Positions 2,565-12,457 of a stretch of 64,000 bases of DNA are shown piece after piece. The notes beneath the pieces were generated by a model. The model had not been told where the DNA came from. It made no database searches and saw only the letters and a program-made list of their open reading frames with translations. Every line of letters starts with the position of its first letter. Position 1 is the first letter of the stretch. A program made the translations under genes and the position numbers. The stretch is taken from the NCBI RefSeq assembly GCF_004803915.1, contig NZ_CP039396.1:2790001-2854000 (forward strand), given 5' to 3'. The DNA is from Duncaniella dubosii. GTDB lineage: Bacteria; Bacteroidota; Bacteroidia; Bacteroidales; Muribaculaceae.

Positions 2565-4016
2565 ATGGCTGAATCTCTAAAAAACCGCACTGTAAATGGT
2601 GTAGTTTGGAGTGCGATAGACAGGTTCTCTGCCTTAGGTATTCAGATAGTATGTTCTCTAATTATTGCTCATCTGTTAACTCCCGAGGATTTCGGTATTC
2701 TTGGAATGATTACTGTGTTTTCTGCAATCGGACTGGTAATTATAGACAGTGGTTTTGGATTAGCCCTTATTCGACGTAATGATGTGACAGAATTGGATTA
2801 CTCATCTGTCTTCTATTTAAATTTATTTCTTGCGATAATATGTTACTCGGTTCTTTATTGCTTATCTCCCTTAATAGCTGATTTCTACAATCTTGAACCT
2901 TTGACTCAGATATGTAGAGTTACTTTTTGGGTACTGCCTATCAATGCCTTCGGCCTTATTCAAAATACAATACTTCTAAAAAAAATTGATTTCAAAACAA
3001 TTGCGATTGCTTCACTTGCTTCCTCATTGTTTTCTGGTATTATAGGTATTATCCTTGCCTATAACATACGAAATGTCTGGGCATTGGTTATCCAAAATAT
3101 ATCTATGTATGGTCTTCGTTCCATTATTCTATGGTGTGTAGGCCATTGGAAACCAATGCTGCGCTTTTCCATAACTTCTATTAAATCAATGTGGAGCTAC
3201 TCCATGAATTTATTGGGTTTTGGCTTAATATCCAGCCTTACTCAAAATATATATCCGTTAGTAATAGGAAAGTTTTACAATGCTACGCAGTTGGGATTTT
3301 ATTCCCAAGCAGATCGATTGCAAAAGTTACCGGCAACAAGCATTACAGAAGTTATACAACGTGTTTGTTTTCCAGTATTATCAGAGGTCAAGGAAGATAT
3401 TCCTCGAATGCGCGAAGCTTATCGGAAAATCATAATGACAACTTTCTTCATCGTTTTTCCAATGATGATACTCCTGATAGGGATTGCGAATGAACTTATA
3501 ATGCTTTTACTTGGCCCTCAATGGAGCGAATCGATTTTATACTTTCAGATTCTATGTATTGTCGGTGCTCTCTACCCACTACATTCCATTAATCTCAACA
3601 TTCTTAATGTCGTCGGTAAAAGCCGGCTCTCACTTGTATTAGAAGTAGCAAGAAAGGTCATCCTTATTTTATTAATAATTATCGCTATCAAGTATGATAT
3701 GATTATACTTGTTCTTGCACAAGTAGTTTACAGCATAATAGTCCTGTTTCTAAATATGTATTATAGTGGCAGAGAAATTGATTATGGAATTATACAACAA
3801 TTTAGAGATATTTCTCCAACAATTCTCTTGTCTCTTATTTCATTGGGGCTGATTTCATTATTCATATATATCCCATATCAGCATGAATTTGTCTTACTTG
3901 TAATAAAGTGTTTGACTTTCATTATATCATTTTTTATGCTTAATCGAATATTCAAAACTCAATCATATTCATTTGCTATACCTATATTGGCCAATCTGAT
4001 AAAACAAATACGATGA
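2565..4016 (+). CDS. Polysaccharide flippase, Wzx/MOP family
   Basis: Likely moves undecaprenyl-linked oligosaccharide units across the inner membrane. The 483-residue protein is almost entirely hydrophobic, with 12-14 membrane segments. It starts with a basic amphipathic stretch (LKNRTVNGVVWSAIDRF) typical of the PST/RfbX branch, and family features such as LLTPEDFGILGM and FYSQADRLQKLP are visible. The ATG follows the dehydrogenase stop by 6 bp, and the 3' end overlaps the next gene (ATGA, 4 bp). Visibly AT-rich compared with ugd, gmd and fcl, as is common for serotype-specific capsule genes. The substrate cannot be told from sequence. Confidence 0.9.
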   Translation: MAESLKNRTVNGVVWSAIDRFSALGIQIVCSLIIAHLLTPEDFGILGMITVFSAIGLVIIDSGFGLALIRRNDVTELDYSSVFYLNLFLAIICYSVLYCLSPLIADFYNLEPLTQICRVTFWVLPINAFGLIQNTILLKKIDFKTIAIASLASSLFSGIIGIILAYNIRNVWALVIQNISMYGLRSIILWCVGHWKPMLRFSITSIKSMWSYSMNLLGFGLISSLTQNIYPLVIGKFYNATQLGFYSQADRLQKLPATSITEVIQRVCFPVLSEVKEDIPRMREAYRKIIMTTFFIVFPMMILLIGIANELIMLLLGPQWSESILYFQILCIVGALYPLHSINLNILNVVGKSRLSLVLEVARKVILILLIIIAIKYDMIILVLAQVVYSIIVLFLNMYYSGREIDYGIIQQFRDISPTILLSLISLGLISLFIYIPYQHEFVLLVIKCLTFIISFFMLNRIFKTQSYSFAIPILANLIKQIR

Positions 4017-4723
4017 ATCGATTCAGTAATATCATAACGTTTCTAAAGACAACCTCTATTATAAAAACTTTATATTTCAACTTTAAATCATTCAAATTCA
4101 CTAAGGCATTACATCTTCCTGTATTAGTCGGAAAGAAAGTATCCTTAAAATCTATCGGGAATGTAGTTCTGAACTATGATGGCCCTAAAAAAATTCATAT
4201 AGGGTCTGCGAATCTATTCAACACCACAACCTCTATGCCAACAATTTGGAATAATTTAGGCAATGTGGCTTTTAATGGACCGGTAACATTCTATCCCGGC
4301 ACAACGATATATGTCACGTCTAATGCCACAATTGAATTTGGAGGAAATAACAGGTTTGGGAAAAACACATCATTATTATGTACGAAATACATTAAGATAG
4401 GACATACGACAGGATTTTCATGGGATTGTCAGATTGCAGATTCTGATTTTCATTTTATTGAAAATATGGAATCCGGAGACATTAAACCACGTTCTGCTTC
4501 GATACTCATCGGAAACAATGTTTGGTGTGGAAATAGAGTTGTAATCGGAAAAGGAGTTACTATCGCTGACAATTGTATTTGTGGAATGAATACACTTGTT
4601 AATAAATCATGTGAGATACCATACTCACTACTTCTCGGAATCCCTGCAAAGATACGTTCTGGCAAATTTAGGCGTGTCTTTGATTTGGATAAGGAAAACT
4701 ATCTTATTTCTAAATTTGGATAA
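4013..4723 (+). CDS. Left-handed beta-helix acyltransferase
   Basis: 236 residues with hexapeptide repeats from about residue 90 to the end. The C-terminal part (IGNNVWCGNRVVIGKGVTI, then LLGIPAKIRS) is the classic O- or N-acetyltransferase end of the LbH family. Probably acetylates a sugar in the repeat unit, using acetyl-CoA in the cytoplasm. Overlaps the flippase stop by 4 bp and is followed 6 bp later by a glycosyltransferase, so it is translationally coupled in the operon. Unlike the two other acetyltransferases of this cluster, it is intact and has no long G tract. Confidence 0.85.
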   Translation: MNRFSNIITFLKTTSIIKTLYFNFKSFKFTKALHLPVLVGKKVSLKSIGNVVLNYDGPKKIHIGSANLFNTTTSMPTIWNNLGNVAFNGPVTFYPGTTIYVTSNATIEFGGNNRFGKNTSLLCTKYIKIGHTTGFSWDCQIADSDFHFIENMESGDIKPRSASILIGNNVWCGNRVVIGKGVTIADNCICGMNTLVNKSCEIPYSLLLGIPAKIRSGKFRRVFDLDKENYLISKFG

Positions 4724-4729
4724 CATCAA

Positions 4730-5857
4730 ATGGCGACTCTTATATTTGACAATACCCTTTCAGGCCATCATTTGGAATATCTCAATCACATCTACAAGGG
4801 TGCAATTCAACGCACCGACGAAAAATTTGTGTTTGCAGTTCCAAGACAAGAATGGAATAATGTCAGAGAAAAATGTGAATGGCCACAAGCCGACAATATT
4901 CGCTGGGTGATGCTTGACGACTATGAATGTCAGGACGTGTCCAAAGGCTCGATGTTAGTCCGATGCTTTAAACTCTCAAGATTGGTTAAACGGGTGGCGT
5001 TAAATGAGAACGTCAGTAAGATTAAATTGATATCCCTTGCCGGAGTCATACCATTTCTTCCTTTAATGCTCCCGAGCGAGGTCAAACTGTCTGGAATTAT
5101 ATATAAAATTTATCTCCGTGCGCCTAAAAAGGGATTTCGTGGTTTAATCGACAAGTTTAGATATACGATAATGGCAAGGAGCAGGTTAATGGATAAAGTT
5201 TTTATTCTAAACGATCCGCGCAGTGCCGAAAGACTTAATAAGATTTATGACTCACGACGTTTCATATCTCTTGCAGATCCCGTCCCCCAACCAGATATGA
5301 ATGAGGTGAGAAATCTTCGGCCTATATTGAATATACCATCTTCAGCCACTGTATTTCTTCATTTCGGGTCAATGGATAAGCGTAAAGGGACGCTTGAAAT
5401 ACTCCGAGCACTGAATGTCATGCCAAAACAAGAGCATTTTAATCGTTATTTCATATTTGCCGGACGTGTGGGTGATAATCTAAAAGATCAATTTTATTCT
5501 TTGGCAAAAGACGCTGAGTCGAAAGGTGCTCACATAATAATAAGAGACGAATTCTGCTCTTATGAATTACTTCATTCATTGTGTCATACATCTGATGTCA
5601 TATTGATTCCTTATCTATTGACTGATTTGTCAAGTGGTGCTTTGGGATATGCGGCGCTGCATCATAAACCGGTTATAGGACCGGCGAGCGGACTTATTGG
5701 AGAACTGATAAATGATAATAATTTGGGGCTTACGCTTTCATGTATAAATCAGGAAATGCTTGCAAAGTCCTTTTCGGTAGATATACCGTATGAAGAATCC
5801 ATGTATGCAGAAAAGAACTCCATTTATTTATTTACAAAAACAATTCTTGATTCATAA
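4730..5857 (+). CDS. Glycosyltransferase, GT-B fold (GT4-like)
   Basis: 375 residues. The C-terminal half has the nucleotide-sugar-binding half of a GT-B enzyme: FLHFGSMDKRKGTLEIL, FAGRVGDN, a region like VILIPYLLTDLSSGALGYAAL and a final Gly-rich HKPVIGPASGLIGELI, where the EX7E motif would sit. The N-terminal opening (FDNTLSGHHLEYLNHIY) suits acceptor binding. Adds one sugar to the lipid-linked repeat unit at the cytoplasmic membrane face; donor and linkage unknown. Stops immediately before the next ATG at 5858. Confidence 0.82.
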   Translation: MATLIFDNTLSGHHLEYLNHIYKGAIQRTDEKFVFAVPRQEWNNVREKCEWPQADNIRWVMLDDYECQDVSKGSMLVRCFKLSRLVKRVALNENVSKIKLISLAGVIPFLPLMLPSEVKLSGIIYKIYLRAPKKGFRGLIDKFRYTIMARSRLMDKVFILNDPRSAERLNKIYDSRRFISLADPVPQPDMNEVRNLRPILNIPSSATVFLHFGSMDKRKGTLEILRALNVMPKQEHFNRYFIFAGRVGDNLKDQFYSLAKDAESKGAHIIIRDEFCSYELLHSLCHTSDVILIPYLLTDLSSGALGYAALHHKPVIGPASGLIGELINDNNLGLTLSCINQEMLAKSFSVDIPYEESMYAEKNSIYLFTKTILDS

Positions 5858-7117
5858 ATGAATTTAAGGTTTAACATTCCGTCATATTCAGAGATTCGGC
5901 ATGAGTCCCGTCCTTTAGCTATGGGGTTAATAATTGTTGGGGCTGCTTTAGGAATGTATATGAATTTCTATTTTGGCAACATCGGATGGAATAATGTCCT
6001 TATGTTAGGCTCTTTGATGCTTTTACCCAATTGGAGAAATTTATCTTGTTTCCGATTGCCGTTTGTAAATCGAACGTTTAAAACCATATTACTTTTCCAA
6101 GTGATATGTATAGTCTACATGGTTATTGGAGGATTAATTGACATTTCACTTATGACATATCTTCTTTTCACCATATTTATGATGATAGGTATTATGTCTC
6201 AGACACCATCGGATATGTCAATTCCAAAAGTTGCGTTTTATTCATGGCTATTTGGGTGGATTTGCATTGCGTTTTGCACAACAACGATGGCTACGGGAGC
6301 ATTCTTTATCGAATATGCTCGTCTTCATGACGGATCTGGTTATCAAAGCATCTTGATTGATTTAACAATGGCAGGTAACATTTACACGTTTATTGTATGT
6401 TGTCTGTATTATCTCAAGAGTTCGAAGACAAAATCAAATCTTTCAATATTGGGTATTATTATAGGATTGATTTTAATGGTTATTCTTGGAAAGAGGACCC
6501 CGCTTCTTATTTCAATTATTTCGATATGTTTTTATCTATCCCGTTTTCATCCGATATCAAGAACTGTCAATAAAAAAGCGATTGGTTACAGCTTGCTGTT
6601 TTTAGGATTGATTGTATTGTTATTAAAAATATCAGATTTTGGTGAGATATTTATAACTGTAATAAAACGTTCCATTGATGGTGTTTTTGATATGATACAT
6701 GGAACCTCAAGTACAGGTGCCGCTGCGATGGAACGTTATCGGCTACGCGATTGGGCTTTTACATATATTGAAAATAAATTTACGCCGTTTAATTATCTTT
6801 TTGGAGCCGGATTTATGACAAAATGGCTCGATGCTCCCTTGCTTCAAGCTTATCTTGACATGGGAATAATCGGGTTTTCAGTATATTTTTACTACGTTAT
6901 TGTAAAGCCACTTAAATTGACATTTTCAAGGTTATCACGCAATCGAATCGTATTTTGGGGTTGCGCACTAAATTTTTATAATATTTTCTCCGCATTGAAT
7001 TCTGGTGTTCCATATACTCATCTTCGCTGGATACCACTAATTGTTTTGATTCTTACAATTAACAGTTTAAGAGATGGAAGCAACAGAACTGAAATCAAGC
7101 TATGTTACGAGTCGTAA
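5858..7117 (+). CDS. O-antigen/capsule polymerase, Wzy-like
   Basis: 419 residues with about 10-12 hydrophobic segments and a long hydrophilic loop around residues 270-320, the shape of Wzy polymerases, which join repeat units in the periplasm. Sequence identity within this family is always low, so the call rests on topology and on its place between glycosyltransferases and a flippase. The start directly abuts the preceding stop, implying coupling. It is very AT-rich. An alternative would be an O-antigen ligase, but the cluster needs a polymerase and this is the only candidate in it. Confidence 0.78.
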   Translation: MNLRFNIPSYSEIRHESRPLAMGLIIVGAALGMYMNFYFGNIGWNNVLMLGSLMLLPNWRNLSCFRLPFVNRTFKTILLFQVICIVYMVIGGLIDISLMTYLLFTIFMMIGIMSQTPSDMSIPKVAFYSWLFGWICIAFCTTTMATGAFFIEYARLHDGSGYQSILIDLTMAGNIYTFIVCCLYYLKSSKTKSNLSILGIIIGLILMVILGKRTPLLISIISICFYLSRFHPISRTVNKKAIGYSLLFLGLIVLLLKISDFGEIFITVIKRSIDGVFDMIHGTSSTGAAAMERYRLRDWAFTYIENKFTPFNYLFGAGFMTKWLDAPLLQAYLDMGIIGFSVYFYYVIVKPLKLTFSRLSRNRIVFWGCALNFYNIFSALNSGVPYTHLRWIPLIVLILTINSLRDGSNRTEIKLCYES

Positions 7118-7174
7118 ATATCCCATATTTTATCATTATAAATTATAACTGCCATTAATCAATCATTGTACGAT

Positions 7175-8272
7175 ATGTCAAAACTCTGTGTAATTTATAA
7201 TATGGCTGCCAAATATCGCGCCCCTATTTTCCAGTTGATGGATAAAGAAATGGACGTTGACTGGTACTTCGGCAATCCTATTGGTGATATAAAGGGATTA
7301 GAACCTGAATTATTGAAAAATGCAACTATCGTAAACCGTAAGATTTGGAAGGGACTTACGTGGCAAAAAGGTATCTTGAAGCATCTTGTTAATAAAAATT
7401 ATGACAGATATCTAATGCTTGGCGAACCATTCACGCTGTCGACTTGGGCTTTTATGCTATTAAAAAAAATAGTTGTCCCAGAGAAAAAAGTTTATTTATG
7501 GAGTCATGGTTGGTATGGTCGTGAGAATTTTACAAAGAAATGGATTAAACGTGCTTTCTTCGGGCTTGCTGATGGGAATTTTCTATATGGTAATTATGCA
7601 CGCAAAGTAGCAATTGAACAGGGAAACAATCCTGATAAATTATGGGTAATACATAACTCTCTTAATTATTCGAAGCACATAGAGTTACGCAGATTGATTA
7701 AACCGTCAGCCATCTATAAGGAATATTTTGGGGATGACAATCCGGTCTTGATATTCATCGGGCGTTTGACAAAAATAAAAAAACTTAATCAGATATTTGA
7801 AGCAGTTGCTTTTTTGAAAAAACAAGGCTCGAATTATAATGTGGTTTTAGTTGGCGACGGTGAAGAACGGTCTATGCTTGAAATAGAAGCTATAAAATTA
7901 AAAATTCCAGTATGGTTTTATGGAAGTTGCTATGATGAAATCAAGAATGCTGAGCTGATATACAACGCAGATTTATGTGTATCACCCGGTAACGTCGGTC
8001 TGACAGCAATACATGCAATGACATTTGGGACTCCTGTCATAACGCATTCTAATTTTTCCAATCAAATGCCAGAATTTGAGGCTATAATTCCCAATAAAAC
8101 AGGTAATTTCTTTACGGAGAATTCTATTCAAAATCTTGTTGAATCAATCTCAAAGTGGTTTTCAGATAAAAATTATTCACGAGAACGGATTCGACAATAT
8201 TGTTATAAAGAAATTGATAATTTCTGGACGCCTAAATATCAACTCGATATAATAAAAAAACATCTTTCATGA
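7175..8272 (+). CDS. Glycosyltransferase family 4 protein
   Basis: 365 residues from the ATG at 7175 (reading MSKLCVIYNMAAKYRAPIFQ). The N-terminal acceptor half is followed by the donor half with VLIFIGRLTKIKKLNQIFEA, VVLVGDGEERSMLE and a loop with LCVSPGNVGLTAIHAMTFGTP, the place of the GT4 EX7E motif. Retaining transferase acting in the cytoplasm on the growing lipid-linked unit. Separated from the polymerase by 57 bp, the longest gap in this part of the operon. Its TGA overlaps the ATG of the next acetyltransferase (ATGA). Confidence 0.85.
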   Translation: MSKLCVIYNMAAKYRAPIFQLMDKEMDVDWYFGNPIGDIKGLEPELLKNATIVNRKIWKGLTWQKGILKHLVNKNYDRYLMLGEPFTLSTWAFMLLKKIVVPEKKVYLWSHGWYGRENFTKKWIKRAFFGLADGNFLYGNYARKVAIEQGNNPDKLWVIHNSLNYSKHIELRRLIKPSAIYKEYFGDDNPVLIFIGRLTKIKKLNQIFEAVAFLKKQGSNYNVVLVGDGEERSMLEIEAIKLKIPVWFYGSCYDEIKNAELIYNADLCVSPGNVGLTAIHAMTFGTPVITHSNFSNQMPEFEAIIPNKTGNFFTENSIQNLVESISKWFSDKNYSRERIRQYCYKEIDNFWTPKYQLDIIKKHLS

Positions 8273-8810
8273 AATCTGTAGATGCATTTCAAGATATTCG
8301 TAAGAATTATAATAATGTAAACCTGTTTTCTCATATATATCGATGTTTAAATTCTCCATCATATCGTATCATCTGGTTATTTAGAGTTTTAGGGGGGGTA
8401 ATAGCTTGATTAGCAAGTTGCTCTCCTTATATTACCATAGATATTCACGTAAATATCTTATTGAACTTGAACCTGAGACAAGAATTGGTGCTGGCATACA
8501 TTTCCCACACAATGGGCCAATTGTAATTAATCCTAAAACTAAAATAGGAGAAAATTGCATAATACATCCATGTGTATTATTAGGTGGAGATCGTAAAACT
8601 GGAGCCCCTGTAATCGGTAATAATGTTTTTATAGGACATGGCTGTAAGCTTATAGGAAAGGTTGTAATTGGGGACTACGTTTTCATTGCTCCTGGGGCAA
8701 TTGTTACAAAAGATGTATATTCGGACTATATAATAGGTGCTGGCATAAATAATATAATCAGGACTACGGGTGGACGACAAGAAGTCGAACGCTATTCAAT
8801 AAAATTATAA
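8269..8810 (+). pseudogene. Serine acetyltransferase-like O-acetyltransferase, out of frame at a G7 tract
   Basis: A frame starting at the ATGA overlap (8269) encodes 44 residues ending in RVLGGVIA-stop. The rest, from about 8399, is the left-handed beta-helix domain of a CysE-type capsule acetyltransferase (RIGAGIHFPHNGPIVINPK, VIGDYVFIAPGAIVTKDVY) in the -1 frame. The break is at a run of seven G at 8392-8398. Eight G would give one 180-residue protein reading RVLGGGNSLISKLL, which matches the family. As given, the gene is OFF. It may be phase-variable, frameshifted during expression, or an assembly error. The GTG/TTG starts available downstream would lack the N-terminal helices. Confidence 0.8.
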
Positions 8811-8815
8811 ATATC

Positions 8816-10012
8816 ATGCCTATCCTTCTTCAAATCAACGTCACAGCCAACTGGGGTTCTACCGGCAAAATAGCCGAGGATATAGGAAAACTGGCAATCG
8901 AGGCCGGATGGGAGAGCTGGATTGCATATGGACGTGGAAATCCTACAAGCGCTTCCAACCTTATCCGTATTGGCAACGATTTTGATATGAAATTCCATGC
9001 GCTTCAAACACGGCTTTTTGACAATCATGCTCTTGCATCAAGTAAGGTGACAGAGGGATTTATCAGGAAAATAAAGGAAATAAAGCCTGACATCATCCAT
9101 CTTCACAATATACATGGCTATTATCTTAACTATCAGATTCTCTTCAGATTCCTAAAAGAGTATGATGCACCGATAATCTGGACGCTCCATGATTGCTGGC
9201 CGTTTACAGGCCATTGCGCCTACTACGATTTTGCAAAATGCTCACGGTGGCAGACTGAATGTCATGACTGTCCGCAACTTAAAAGCTATCCAGCCTCATT
9301 ATGGCATGACCGCAGCACAAAGAATTTCTTTACAAAGAAGGAATCGTTTCTCGGATGTCGGAATCTGACTTTTGTCCCTGTCTCCGACTGGCTGAACGGG
9401 GAGCTTAAAAAATCATTTCTGTCGGGCTATCCGGCCGTCACAATTCACAACGGCATAGATCTTTCGGTCTTCACCCCGGCTGAGACGGTTAAAGAAGACT
9501 CGACTCAAAAAATAATCCTTGGGGTTGCAAGCGTATGGGACAAGCGTAAAGGACTGGATGAGTTTGTAAAACTGCGTAAATTATTACCTGAAAACTATCA
9601 TATTACTCTTGTCGGTCTCTCGAATGACCAGATAGCAACCCTTCCTGATGGAATAACAGGCATAAGAAGAACCGAGAATGTCCGTCAGCTCGCCGATTTG
9701 TATTCGATGGCGGATGTATTTGTAAATCCAACCCTTGAAGACAATTTCCCGACAACCAACCTTGAGGCGCTTGCTTGCGGTACACCGGTGATAACATATC
9801 GGACCGGAGGATCGCCCGAAGCTATTGATGACGCTACGGGCTTCATCGTAGACTATCAGGATGTAGAAGCCTTGGCAAGACAGATTGTGACTGTTTGCGA
9901 GACCAATGCGATTTCTGCAAATGTATGCCGTAAACGGGCTGAAAATTTTTACAACAAAAAAATAGTATTCCAACAATACATCACTCTCTACAATAATTGT
10001 CTAAAACAATGA
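8816..10012 (+). CDS. Glycosyltransferase family 4 protein
   Basis: 398 residues. N-terminal Gly loop (NVTANWGSTGKIAEDIG), then HLHNIHGYYLNY and a Cys/His cluster (CAYYDFAKCSRW, CHDCPQ) often seen in Bacteroidetes WcaF-neighbour GT4 enzymes. The donor domain has GVASVWDKRKGLDEF, VGLSNDQI and the signature NPTLEDNFPTTNLEALACGTP, with the EX7E-type glutamates. Adds a sugar to the repeat unit. Codon use is visibly less AT-rich than the 2565-8272 block. The stop overlaps the ATG of the following acetyltransferase (ATGA), exactly as at 8269. Confidence 0.88.
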   Translation: MPILLQINVTANWGSTGKIAEDIGKLAIEAGWESWIAYGRGNPTSASNLIRIGNDFDMKFHALQTRLFDNHALASSKVTEGFIRKIKEIKPDIIHLHNIHGYYLNYQILFRFLKEYDAPIIWTLHDCWPFTGHCAYYDFAKCSRWQTECHDCPQLKSYPASLWHDRSTKNFFTKKESFLGCRNLTFVPVSDWLNGELKKSFLSGYPAVTIHNGIDLSVFTPAETVKEDSTQKIILGVASVWDKRKGLDEFVKLRKLLPENYHITLVGLSNDQIATLPDGITGIRRTENVRQLADLYSMADVFVNPTLEDNFPTTNLEALACGTPVITYRTGGSPEAIDDATGFIVDYQDVEALARQIVTVCETNAISANVCRKRAENFYNKKIVFQQYITLYNNCLKQ

Positions 10013-10559
10013 TCCGTTCTTTAGCTTTCCATCTGATTTATTGGAAAAACAAACTTTTTATGCGCAATGTCAGGATGAAAGGCTATTGCGTAATATTCTC
10101 ATTTCCAGGGAGTAATATTAAATTAGGGGGGGTAATATAAACTCCTCATTCACAAGTAATATGCTTGGGCTATGGCAACGTACCATCATGGTGGCACGCT
10201 ATGGCGGAAGTATTGAAATCGGGGATGGCTTCGGCATTTCCGGAACGACAATCTATTCTACATCATCCATTGTAATCGGCAAGAATGCGACAATAGGTGC
10301 TAACTGTAAAATCATCGACAATGATTTCCATCCTCTTGACCCGGAGCAGCGCCGACTGAATCTTAACGAGGAGCATACAGCCCGTAAGCCTATCAGAATA
10401 GGAGACAACTGTTTCATTGGCATGAACAGTATCATACTCAAAGGAACGACAATTGGAAATAATGTCGTAGTCGGTGCTGGCAGTGTTGTTCACGGAACTT
10501 TTCCTGACAACTGCATCATAGCCGGTAACCCTGCCAGAATAATAAGGCAAATCAGATAA
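10009..10559 (+). pseudogene. WcaF/Maa-type hexapeptide acetyltransferase, out of frame at a G7 tract
   Basis: The frame from the ATGA overlap at 10009 runs 43 residues to a TAA at 10138. The catalytic left-handed beta-helix (YGGSIEIGDGFGISGTTIYS, IGDNCFIGMNSIILKG, GNPARIIRQI) continues in the -1 frame. The junction is a run of seven G at 10126-10132 inside the same 15-mer as in the other acetyltransferase (8389-8403). With eight G the product is a 183-residue protein reading IKLGGGNINSSFTSN, as expected for the family. OFF as sequenced. An ATG at 10161 could in principle start a shortened catalytic domain. Followed 17 bp later by a GT2 gene. Confidence 0.8.
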
Positions 10560-10576
10560 TAATCAACTTACATTTT

Positions 10577-11353
10577 ATGAAAATCTCCATCATCACCGCT
10601 ACCTACAATAGCGGTGTGACTCTTCGCGACACTATGGAGAGCGTGCTCGCGCAGGATTTCGATGATTTCGAGCATATCATTGTCGACGGTTGCTCAAAGG
10701 ACCATACCCTTGATATAGTCCGCGAACTTGAACCGCGCTACAACGGACGGCTAAAATGGATTTCCGAACCCGACAATGGAATCTACGACGCGATGAACAA
10801 GGGGATAATGATGGCGACCGGCGATGTGGTCGGCCTCCTGAATTCCGACGATTTCTACAGCGCGTCGGATATCCTCTCGACCGTCGACCGTGAAATCCGC
10901 GAATTCGATGCCGTGTATGGAGATGTCCACTATGTCGACCCCAAGGATACGGCCACGCCTGTCCGTTTCTACTCGTCGGCGGCATTCCGGCGCTGGAAAA
11001 TGAGACTCGGATTCATGCCGGCGCATCCGTCGTTCTACTGTCGCCGTACAGTCTACACCCGCTACGGACTTTTCGATCCCGGGTTTAAGGTCGCAGCCGA
11101 TTTCGAACAGCTCCTGCGTCTGATTTATGTCAACAGTATATTCACAAGATATATAAGGAAAGACTTTGTGACAATGCGCACCGGCGGGGCATCCTCGTCG
11201 GGGCTTCAGAGCCACCGGCGCATCATCAGTGACCACCTGCGTGCCTACCGTAAGAACGGCGTGTCATCAAACATTCTTCTCGAATCACTCCGATATGCCT
11301 ACCGTATAGGCGAACTTCTAAAATTCAGACTTTCATCAATAAAACTAAGGTAA
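10577..11353 (+). CDS. Glycosyltransferase family 2 protein
   Basis: 258 residues with a GT-A fold: ITATYNSGVTLRDTMESVL at the N-terminus, IIVDGCSKDHT, then the DXD-like NSDDFY (residue ~92) that binds the metal-nucleotide sugar. Similar to WcaA-type enzymes of Bacteroidetes capsule clusters. No membrane segment. Likely the priming or an early transferase of this cluster, as it sits next to gmd, but the order of action cannot be read from sequence. The spacer to gmd is 12 bp. Confidence 0.9.
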   Translation: MKISIITATYNSGVTLRDTMESVLAQDFDDFEHIIVDGCSKDHTLDIVRELEPRYNGRLKWISEPDNGIYDAMNKGIMMATGDVVGLLNSDDFYSASDILSTVDREIREFDAVYGDVHYVDPKDTATPVRFYSSAAFRRWKMRLGFMPAHPSFYCRRTVYTRYGLFDPGFKVAADFEQLLRLIYVNSIFTRYIRKDFVTMRTGGASSSGLQSHRRIISDHLRAYRKNGVSSNILLESLRYAYRIGELLKFRLSSIKLR

Positions 11354-11365
11354 CTTAATTCAATT

Positions 11366-12457
11366 ATGAAAAAAGCATTAATCACAGGCATCACCGGTCA
11401 GGATGGTTCGTTTCTGGCCGAGTTTCTTCTCGAAAAAGGCTATGACGTGCACGGCACGATCCGCCGCTCGTCGGTAGACTTCCGCGAGCGCATCGCCCAC
11501 CTCGAGGGACACCCCAACTTCCACCTCCATTACGCCGACCTCGGCGACTCGATGTCGATCATGCAGGTCGTCTCAAAGGTGCGCCCCGACGAGATCTACA
11601 ACCTCGCCGCACAGAGCCACGTGCAGGTGTCGTTCGACTCCCCCGAGTTCACAGCCGATGTCGACGCAACAGGCGTCCTCCGCATCCTTGAGGCCGTACG
11701 CCTCTGCGGACTCGCCGCGACCTGCCGCATCTATCAGGCATCTACCTCAGAGCTCTACGGCAAGGTCGAGGAAGTGCCCCAGAACGAAAAGACACCCTTC
11801 CACCCATATTCGCCATACGCCGTCGCCAAGCTCTACGGCTTCTGGATCGTGAAGGAATACCGCGAGGCATACGGCATGTACTGCTGCTCCGGCATCCTCT
11901 TCAACCACGAGTCAGAGCGCCGCGGCGAGACATTCGTCACCCGCAAGATAACCCTCGCCGCCGCACGCATCGCTCAGGGCAAGCAGGAGAAGCTCTGCCT
12001 TGGCAATCTCTCGTCGCTCCGCGACTGGGGCTACGCACGCGACTACGTGGAGTGCATGTGGCTCATCCTCCAGCAGCCCGAGCCCGAGGACTACGTGATC
12101 GCCACCGGCGAGCAGCACTCCGTCCGCGAGTTCTGCCAGCTCGCATTCCGCCGCGCCGGCATCGAGCTGCGCTTCGAGGGCGAGGGCGAGAACGAGAAGG
12201 GCATCGATGTCAACACCGGCAAGGTGCTGATCGAGGTGTCGCCCGACTTCTACCGCCCGACCGACGTGGTCAACCTCTGGGGCGACCCCACGAAGGCGAA
12301 GCAGAAACTCGGCTGGGACCCCACGAAGAAGACATCGTTCGAGCAGCTCGTCAACCTCATGGTCGACGCAGACATGGCCAAGGTCGCCGTCGAGCGCGCC
12401 GGGGAGCAGGTCAAGCTCAACCTCGCCGAATACCTCGAGAAAGGAATCGTGAAGTAA
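11366..12457 (+). CDS. gmd: GDP-mannose 4,6-dehydratase
   Basis: 363 residues. An extended short-chain dehydrogenase with the N-terminal [18 protein letters not shown] and the catalytic YSPYAVAK. Converts GDP-mannose to GDP-4-keto-6-deoxymannose, the first of two steps to GDP-L-fucose; the second enzyme follows at 12644. Length and motifs match the family (slightly longer than 345-350). The gene is clearly GC-rich with C-ending codons, in sharp contrast to the AT-rich transferase genes upstream, either from strong expression or from a different history. A 186-bp spacer containing an inverted-repeat element separates it from fcl. Confidence 0.96.

What the first reader, a model, noticed from the sequence alone, without database searches (positions are those of the whole stretch)
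10123..10137. Second acetyltransferase with the identical 15-mer TTAGGGGGGGTAATA and the same frame break
A different family of acetyltransferase (10009-10559) has the same tract, the same flanking bases, the same needed change (+1 G), a stop just after the tract, and nearly the same distance from its ATGA-overlapped start (117 versus 123 nt). Two unrelated genes in one operon are unlikely to share this by chance. It suggests a shared switch motif, by slippage or ribosomal/transcriptional frameshifting, that sets the acetylation pattern of the polysaccharide (up to four states).
Basis: partly seen in the sequence, partly recalled or inferred. Interest (0 to 1): 0.75.

Follow-up and report, generated by a model that had tools for sequence, protein, structure and literature searches.

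The report
Poly-G switch in polysaccharide acetyltransferases
Two sugar-acetylating enzyme genes in one surface-polysaccharide operon are interrupted at a short run of G bases, and relatives of one of them carry a G run at the same spot, usually also interrupting the gene, in several other gut bacteria, which suggests a recurrent on/off mutation site rather than a special 15-base motif.

Summary
TTAGGGGGGGTAATA lies at 8389-8403 and 10123-10137 and nowhere else in the 3.69-Mb genome. Each copy sits about 40 codons into an ATGA-coupled hexapeptide acetyltransferase and splits its frame. What recurs in relatives is the G run, not the 15-mer. Of 11 loci found that encode close relatives of the second gene (window included), 6 carry a G6-G9 run at the homologous site. 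The frame is broken in 5 of those 6, and in 0 of the 5 without a run. Downstream of the break the protein stays conserved while synonymous sites are saturated (omega 0.015 between two broken species), so these are not long-dead genes. Best explanation: a slippage-prone poly-G on/off site in a polysaccharide O-acetyltransferase. Against it: all broken copies are shifted in the same direction, so programmed frameshifting is not excluded. Four of the five broken copies are MAGs, and the fifth is the window's own assembly, which has uncertain G9/G10 calls. No within-species length variation or reversibility could be tested. The first gene's only orthologue found has no run, so its case is weaker, and the exact 15-mer is best read as coding coincidence.

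The parts
8269..8409 (+). First acetyltransferase gene, upstream open frame (ATG to TGA just after the G run)
8392..8398 (+). G7 run of the first gene, inside the 15-mer 8389-8403
8400..8810 (+). First gene, downstream open frame with the hexapeptide-repeat domain (serine acetyltransferase/EpsC-like)
10009..10140 (+). Second acetyltransferase gene, upstream open frame (ATG overlapping the preceding stop, to TAA just after the G run)
10123..10137 (+). 15-mer TTAGGGGGGGTAATA; G7 run at 10126-10132
10134..10559 (+). Second gene, downstream open frame with the hexapeptide-repeat domain (WbbJ/maltose O-acetyltransferase-like)
2565..12457 (+). Surrounding polysaccharide operon: flippase-like protein (2565-4016), third hexapeptide transferase without a G7 run (4013-4723), glycosyltransferases (7166-8272, 8816-10012, 10577-11353), GDP-mannose dehydratase (11366-12457)

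Best explanation
The second gene is a polysaccharide O-acetyltransferase with a slippage-prone poly-G run about 40 codons after its start. Gain or loss of a G during replication moves the enzyme domain in or out of frame, so lineages or cells switch between acetylated and non-acetylated polysaccharide. The assembled genome shows the OFF register. The first gene carries the same kind of run and probably behaves in the same way. Shown: the broken frames, the recurrence of the run at the homologous site in other species with both registers seen, and purifying selection on the domain. Inferred: slipped-strand mispairing as the cause, reversibility, and the effect on the polysaccharide.
For: Of 11 loci encoding close relatives of the second gene (window included), 6 have a G6-G9 run at the homologous site (G7, G7, G8, G9, G6, G6): the window, L087, L088, L089, L092, L093. 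The frame is broken in 5 and open in L088, the Segatella albensis type strain. The 5 without a run (L086, L090, L091, L158, L159) are open. Downstream of the run omega is 0.015 between two species that are both broken (window and G198/L087), and synonymous divergence is saturated or above 2.5 in all 36 pairs of nine of these loci, yet GGG GGG is kept in all 6 although GGG is only 12-24% of Gly codons in these loci. Other runs in such polysaccharide loci are in frame: an Acyl_transf_3 gene (G8), a family-2 glycosyltransferase (G11), an NTP_transf_5 protein (G7) and a protein without a Pfam match (G8), so both registers occur. Runs of 7 or more are denser in these loci (9 in 159,245 bp) than elsewhere on contigs of six of the genomes (3 in 399,000 bp).
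Against: No reads and no second strain of the same species were available, so length variation in a population and reversibility are untested. G6 and G7 are short for high-rate slippage (recalled). All five broken copies are shifted in the same direction (chance about 1 in 16 if both directions are equal). Four of the five broken copies are MAGs and the fifth is an assembly with doubtful long G runs; the one named isolate with a run is in frame. L092 also has a further in-frame stop. With the gene-2 runs themselves left out and genomes matched, the density contrast is only 4 in 115,000 against 3 in 399,000 bp, P = 0.049. The first gene's only orthologue found has no run.
Confidence: 0.55

Rival explanations
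1. Programmed recoding: the ribosome (or RNA polymerase) slips by one on the G run and makes a set fraction of full-length enzyme from the unchanged DNA.
For: All 5 broken second-gene loci, the first gene, and two other broken genes of this genome (lpd-like L039, SusC-like L013) are displaced in the same direction, 8 of 8 by my reading. The sequence after the run is unusually conserved in the window, G198 and G201: 28 invariant nt, 7 leading identical codons, P = 7e-5 for that position and 0.006 for a run of that length anywhere. The run pairs with a nearby pyrimidine stretch in the predicted fold of all 8 sequences tried.
Against: L088 is in frame with its run, so a fixed recoding signal is not conserved. 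Run length (6-9) and flanks vary. Stop codons follow at differing distances (2 codons in the window, several more in L093). Fold z-scores are modest (-0.7 to -3.1), and the 28-nt block is also kept in G201, which has no such run. The lpd-like and SusC-like genes are not homologous cases.
Confidence: 0.17
2. Assembly or sequencing error: the runs are miscounted by one in this genome and the genes are intact.
For: The assembly has long-read-type indel errors. Overlapping copies of two small contigs differ only by indels, mostly near contig ends, and the sole interior difference between C5 and C2 over 15.5 kb is G10 against G9. A housekeeping-type lpd-like gene is broken at a G9 run.
Against: On the main contig the other coding G7 runs are in frame, 6 of 6, and three copies of one plasmid G7 agree. 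In the window A or T runs of 7 or more lie inside intact long frames 11 times. Independent assemblies show a broken frame at the same site (L087, L089, L092, L093).
Confidence: 0.12
3. Mutation-prone loss without regular switching: G runs are weak spots at which the enzyme is lost from time to time, for example under phage pressure, and seldom regained.
For: Runs of 6-7 G are short. Five of six runs are OFF. L092 has an additional stop. A review keeps such mutation-prone adaptive loci apart from true phase variation (PMC11868660, passages seen).
Against: Purifying selection on the downstream frame between two OFF species (omega 0.015), and the run is kept at a fixed codon although synonymous sites are saturated.
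Confidence: 0.13

Closest known systems
Simple-sequence-repeat (poly-G) contingency loci of Campylobacter, Helicobacter and Neisseria
   Same: A homopolymeric G run inside surface-structure genes puts the rest of the gene in or out of frame (an H. pylori poly-G example was seen in passages of PMC12003011; Campylobacter and Neisseria phasomes in search listings only).
   Different: The runs here are shorter (6-9 in the second-gene loci), the hosts are Bacteroidales, and no length variation or switching has been shown.
Phase-variable O-acetyltransferases: E. coli K1 NeuO (polysialic acid), H. influenzae oafA
   Same: Acetylation of a surface polysaccharide as the switched trait. NeuO and meningococcal polysialic acid O-acetyltransferases share the hexapeptide fold and are hit by a profile of the second-gene family (3jqy 1.9e-12, 2wlc 3e-16).
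   Different: The K1 repeat is heteropolymeric (passage of PMC3090145), not a G run. oafA is known to me here only from a passage of PMC11868660.
Bacteroides fragilis 638R PSI/9 acetyltransferase frameshift
   Same: A Bacteroidales polysaccharide acetyltransferase broken by one extra base in a C run; the authors proposed slippage (passages of PMC3090145).
   Different: A run of only 4-5 C, one strain pair, and no conserved site across species.
Akkermansia cps1 acyltransferase with mononucleotide repeats
   Same: A gut commensal capsule acyltransferase for which slippage was suggested (passage of PMC13343947).
   Different: Another phylum; the repeats lie at the end of the gene, and the shown switch is an inverton.
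Invertible-promoter capsule switching of Bacteroides
   Same: Generates surface-polysaccharide variation in Bacteroidales (passages of PMC3090145, PMC12118408).
   Different: Switches whole operons by DNA inversion, not single decorating enzymes by run length.

Membership tests
Homopolymer contingency (phase-variable) locus | Homopolymer run inside the coding region of a surface-structure gene, with a frame break at the run | tested here: met
   both genes, in a polysaccharide operon
Homopolymer contingency (phase-variable) locus | Run kept at the same place in orthologues, with differing length and both registers seen | tested here: met
   Second gene: 6 of 11 loci with a run, lengths 6-9, 1 in frame and 5 out. 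First gene: 0 runs in the single orthologue found, so not met there
Homopolymer contingency (phase-variable) locus | Length variation among isolates or cells of one species | not testable with these tools
   No reads and no second strain held; the protein database was switched off
Homopolymer contingency (phase-variable) locus | High-rate, reversible switching | not testable with these tools
   Needs an experiment
Homopolymer contingency (phase-variable) locus | Gene still under selection although often OFF | tested here: met
   Omega 0.015 between two OFF species; synonymous saturation across nine loci
Programmed -1 frameshifting | Same frame offset in the homologues that keep the slippery run | tested here: not met
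   5 of 6 share the offset, but L088 keeps a G8 run with no offset
Programmed -1 frameshifting | Downstream stimulatory structure | tested here: inconclusive
   Run pairs with a nearby pyrimidine stretch in 8 of 8 folds; z -0.7 to -3.1; no covariation test made
Hexapeptide-repeat (left-handed beta-helix) acyltransferase | Hexapeptide repeats above the curated cut-off | tested here: met
   PF00132 53.2 and 47.6 bits, cut-off 27
Hexapeptide-repeat (left-handed beta-helix) acyltransferase | Acetyl transfer to the polysaccharide | not testable with these tools
   Inferred from operon context and relatives; no NCBIfam equivalog cut-off was reached

The most novel reading that the evidence does not exclude
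Bacteroidales surface-polysaccharide loci carry a widespread poly-G contingency system in their decorating and assembly enzymes (acetyltransferases first, also acyltransferases and glycosyltransferases). It works beneath the known invertible promoters and gives each expressed polysaccharide several acetylation or sugar variants; the two sites in this operon would give four states.
Probability: 0.35. Interest if true: 0.7.

Novelty: new member of a known kind. Interest (0 to 1): 0.5.

Why it matters
Capsule variation in gut Bacteroidales is usually explained by promoter inversion. A run-length switch in single decorating enzymes would add a second, finer layer of variation that inversion-based surveys miss and that annotation pipelines record as pseudogenes. 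It could be tested directly by amplicon sequencing of two short sites.

Tried and rejected
Conserved 15-mer motif: rejected. TTAG6-9TAATA occurs in 5 of 198 family genomes including the window's own. Of the four others, L003 and L006 lie between genes and L004 inside a long open frame by ORF listing only; L005 was not examined. Flanks differ in the second-gene relatives.

Window-only artefact: not supported for the second gene, because other assemblies agree; still open for run length in this assembly.

Gene 1 in relatives: 2 of 27 genus genomes by DNA, 2 of 397 family genomes by protein, 0 of 139 in the family of G785, own genome included in the first two. Only G117/L049 is a relative, and it has no run.

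More distant homologues of gene 2: 24 rows (two show the same gene) have no G run above 5 within 160 nt of the alignment start. That alignment start is not always at the homologous site, so this control is rough.

Plasmids and viral contigs: no relative of gene 2. Predicted structure of the intact relative L086: mean pLDDT 67.9; the run's residues fall in a turn between two early strands; not used as evidence.

Of 43 loci I examined 13 (L086-L098) for a run; the other 30 are remote matches and were not examined. First dN/dS attempt was out of frame for G201 and was redone; its valid G000-G198 value was 0.024 on 135 codons.

Full report
Observation. The window holds two copies of TTAGGGGGGGTAATA, the only two in its genome G000 of 3,691,068 bases in 5 contigs. 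Each lies 117 or 123 nt after an ATG that overlaps the preceding stop codon, and each is followed within a few codons by a stop, while the rest of the enzyme is open in a frame displaced by one. The operon holds a flippase-like protein, glycosyltransferases, a third hexapeptide transferase without a G7 run, and GDP-mannose dehydratase.

What recurs. The second gene was followed in relatives: protein search in 397 family genomes, genome contigs, 393 order genomes, 271 and 140 genomes of two other families. With a post hoc cut at the gap between profile E-values of 1e-67 and 1e-39, and counting L086, which is the profile's first row, 11 loci form a close group: the window, L087 (the same sequence as G198), L086 (the same as G201), L088, L089, L090, L091, L092, L093, L158, L159. 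Seven of them built the profile, so their matches are by construction. Six have a G run at the homologous site: window G7, L087 G7, L088 G8, L089 G9, L092 G6, L093 G6. L088 (Segatella albensis DSM 11370) is in frame; the other five are not. L086, L090, L091, L158 and L159 have no such run and are open. In 24 rows of more distant homologues no G run above 5 was seen near the alignment start.

Selection. Between the window and G198, both out of frame, 140 codons downstream of the run give dN 0.053, dS 3.5, omega 0.015. Across nine loci, synonymous divergence is above 2.5 or not computable in all 36 pairs, while protein identity is 63-96%. With synonymous sites randomised, two successive GGG codons persist in all six run-bearing loci although GGG is 12-24% of Gly codons there; multiplied by hand this is about 1e-10, but it is post hoc, since the six were counted for having the run. 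Orthologues without the run encode Gly-Arg-Gly or Gly-Lys-Gly there, so the protein does not demand it. I read this as selection for, or repeated origin of, the run.

Mechanism. Recurrence, varied length, both registers, a surface-polysaccharide enzyme and retained selection fit a poly-G contingency locus. Other runs in such loci are in frame: an acyltransferase of family PF01757 (G8), a family-2 glycosyltransferase of G117 (G11), an NTP_transf_5 protein (G7) and a protein without a Pfam match (G8). One further run (L169, G10) lies near the 3' end of a long frame, and one (L173, G8) opposite a gene. Runs of 7 or more: 9 in 159,245 bp of these loci, 3 in 399,000 bp elsewhere on contigs of six of the genomes. 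Leaving out the gene-2 runs and matching genomes, 4 in 115,000 against 3 in 399,000, P = 0.049.

Results against. (a) Direction: the five broken second-gene loci, the first gene, and the lpd-like and SusC-like genes of G000 (named by eye) are all displaced in the same direction. This could reflect contraction bias, recoding, or undercounting. (b) The window, G198 and G201 share 28 invariant nt after the run, 7 leading identical codons, P = 7e-5 there and 0.006 anywhere, and the run pairs with a nearby pyrimidine stretch in 8 of 8 folds with z -0.7 to -3.1. This leaves room for an RNA-level signal, though G201 keeps the block without the run. (c) Assembly: G000 has 30 distinct G runs of 7 or more, 22 on the main contig. 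Of these 22, by ORF listing, 4 break a frame (the two here, lpd-like G9, SusC-like G8), 9 lie in frame (7 sense, 2 opposite strand), and 9 are between genes or unassigned. The small contigs show indel-only differences between copies, mostly near ends, and the one interior difference between C5 and C2 is G10 against G9, so G9/G10 counts are doubtful. The other six coding G7 runs on the main contig are in frame. (d) Four of the five broken second-gene copies are MAGs; their sequencing method is not given. L092 has a further stop.

First gene. Its only relative found, L049 of G117, is intact without a run; Gly-Gly and a following Asn-Ser are kept there.

Literature. Searches listed no paper that, by title, abstract start or passages seen, describes poly-G switching of Bacteroidales polysaccharide acetyltransferases; for only the first 12-15 of 41-258 papers were listed. 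Passages of PMC3090145, PMC11868660, PMC3711429, PMC12003011, PMC13343947 and PMC12118408 were seen; none was read whole. PMC3090145 proposed slippage for a B. fragilis acetyltransferase; PMC13343947 mentions it for an Akkermansia acyltransferase. The kind is known; the site and hosts appear new within these searches.

Organism.

Noticed in passing
G000 C1 2995461-2995469 (L039:1462-1470): An lpd-like gene is split at a G9 run; none of the 14 relatives' loci compared has a G run of 6 or more there. Either a miscount in this assembly or another slippage-prone run.
   Followed up: partly
G000 C1 1109051-1109058 (L013:1500-1507): A SusC-like gene is split at a G8 run about 12 codons after its start.
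   Followed up: no
G000 C1 1224867-1225489 (L016): Three G runs (G10, G9, G7) about 308 bases apart, the first two upstream of TAnnTTTG-like promoter boxes: possible promoter-length variation.
   Followed up: no
G000 C1 1755736-1756388 (L032): Tandem genes of phage-tail-like appearance (by eye) have in-frame G9 and G8 runs near their 3' ends, each followed by TAA in another register.
   Followed up: no
G000 contigs C2, C3, C5 (L160-L164): C2 and C5 are the same element with an 18.7-kb repeat spacing, and C3 has a 15.4-kb spacing: probably circular plasmids assembled past their ends, with indel differences mostly near contig ends.
   Followed up: partly
window 8406-8409 and 10161: The first gene's stop TGA overlaps a TTG in the downstream frame, and the second gene has an in-frame ATG 20 nt after its stop; a shortened enzyme domain could be made by re-initiation.
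   Followed up: no
L173:5689 (G117): A glycosyltransferase syntenic to window 10577-11353 has an in-frame G11 run that the window gene lacks.
   Followed up: partly
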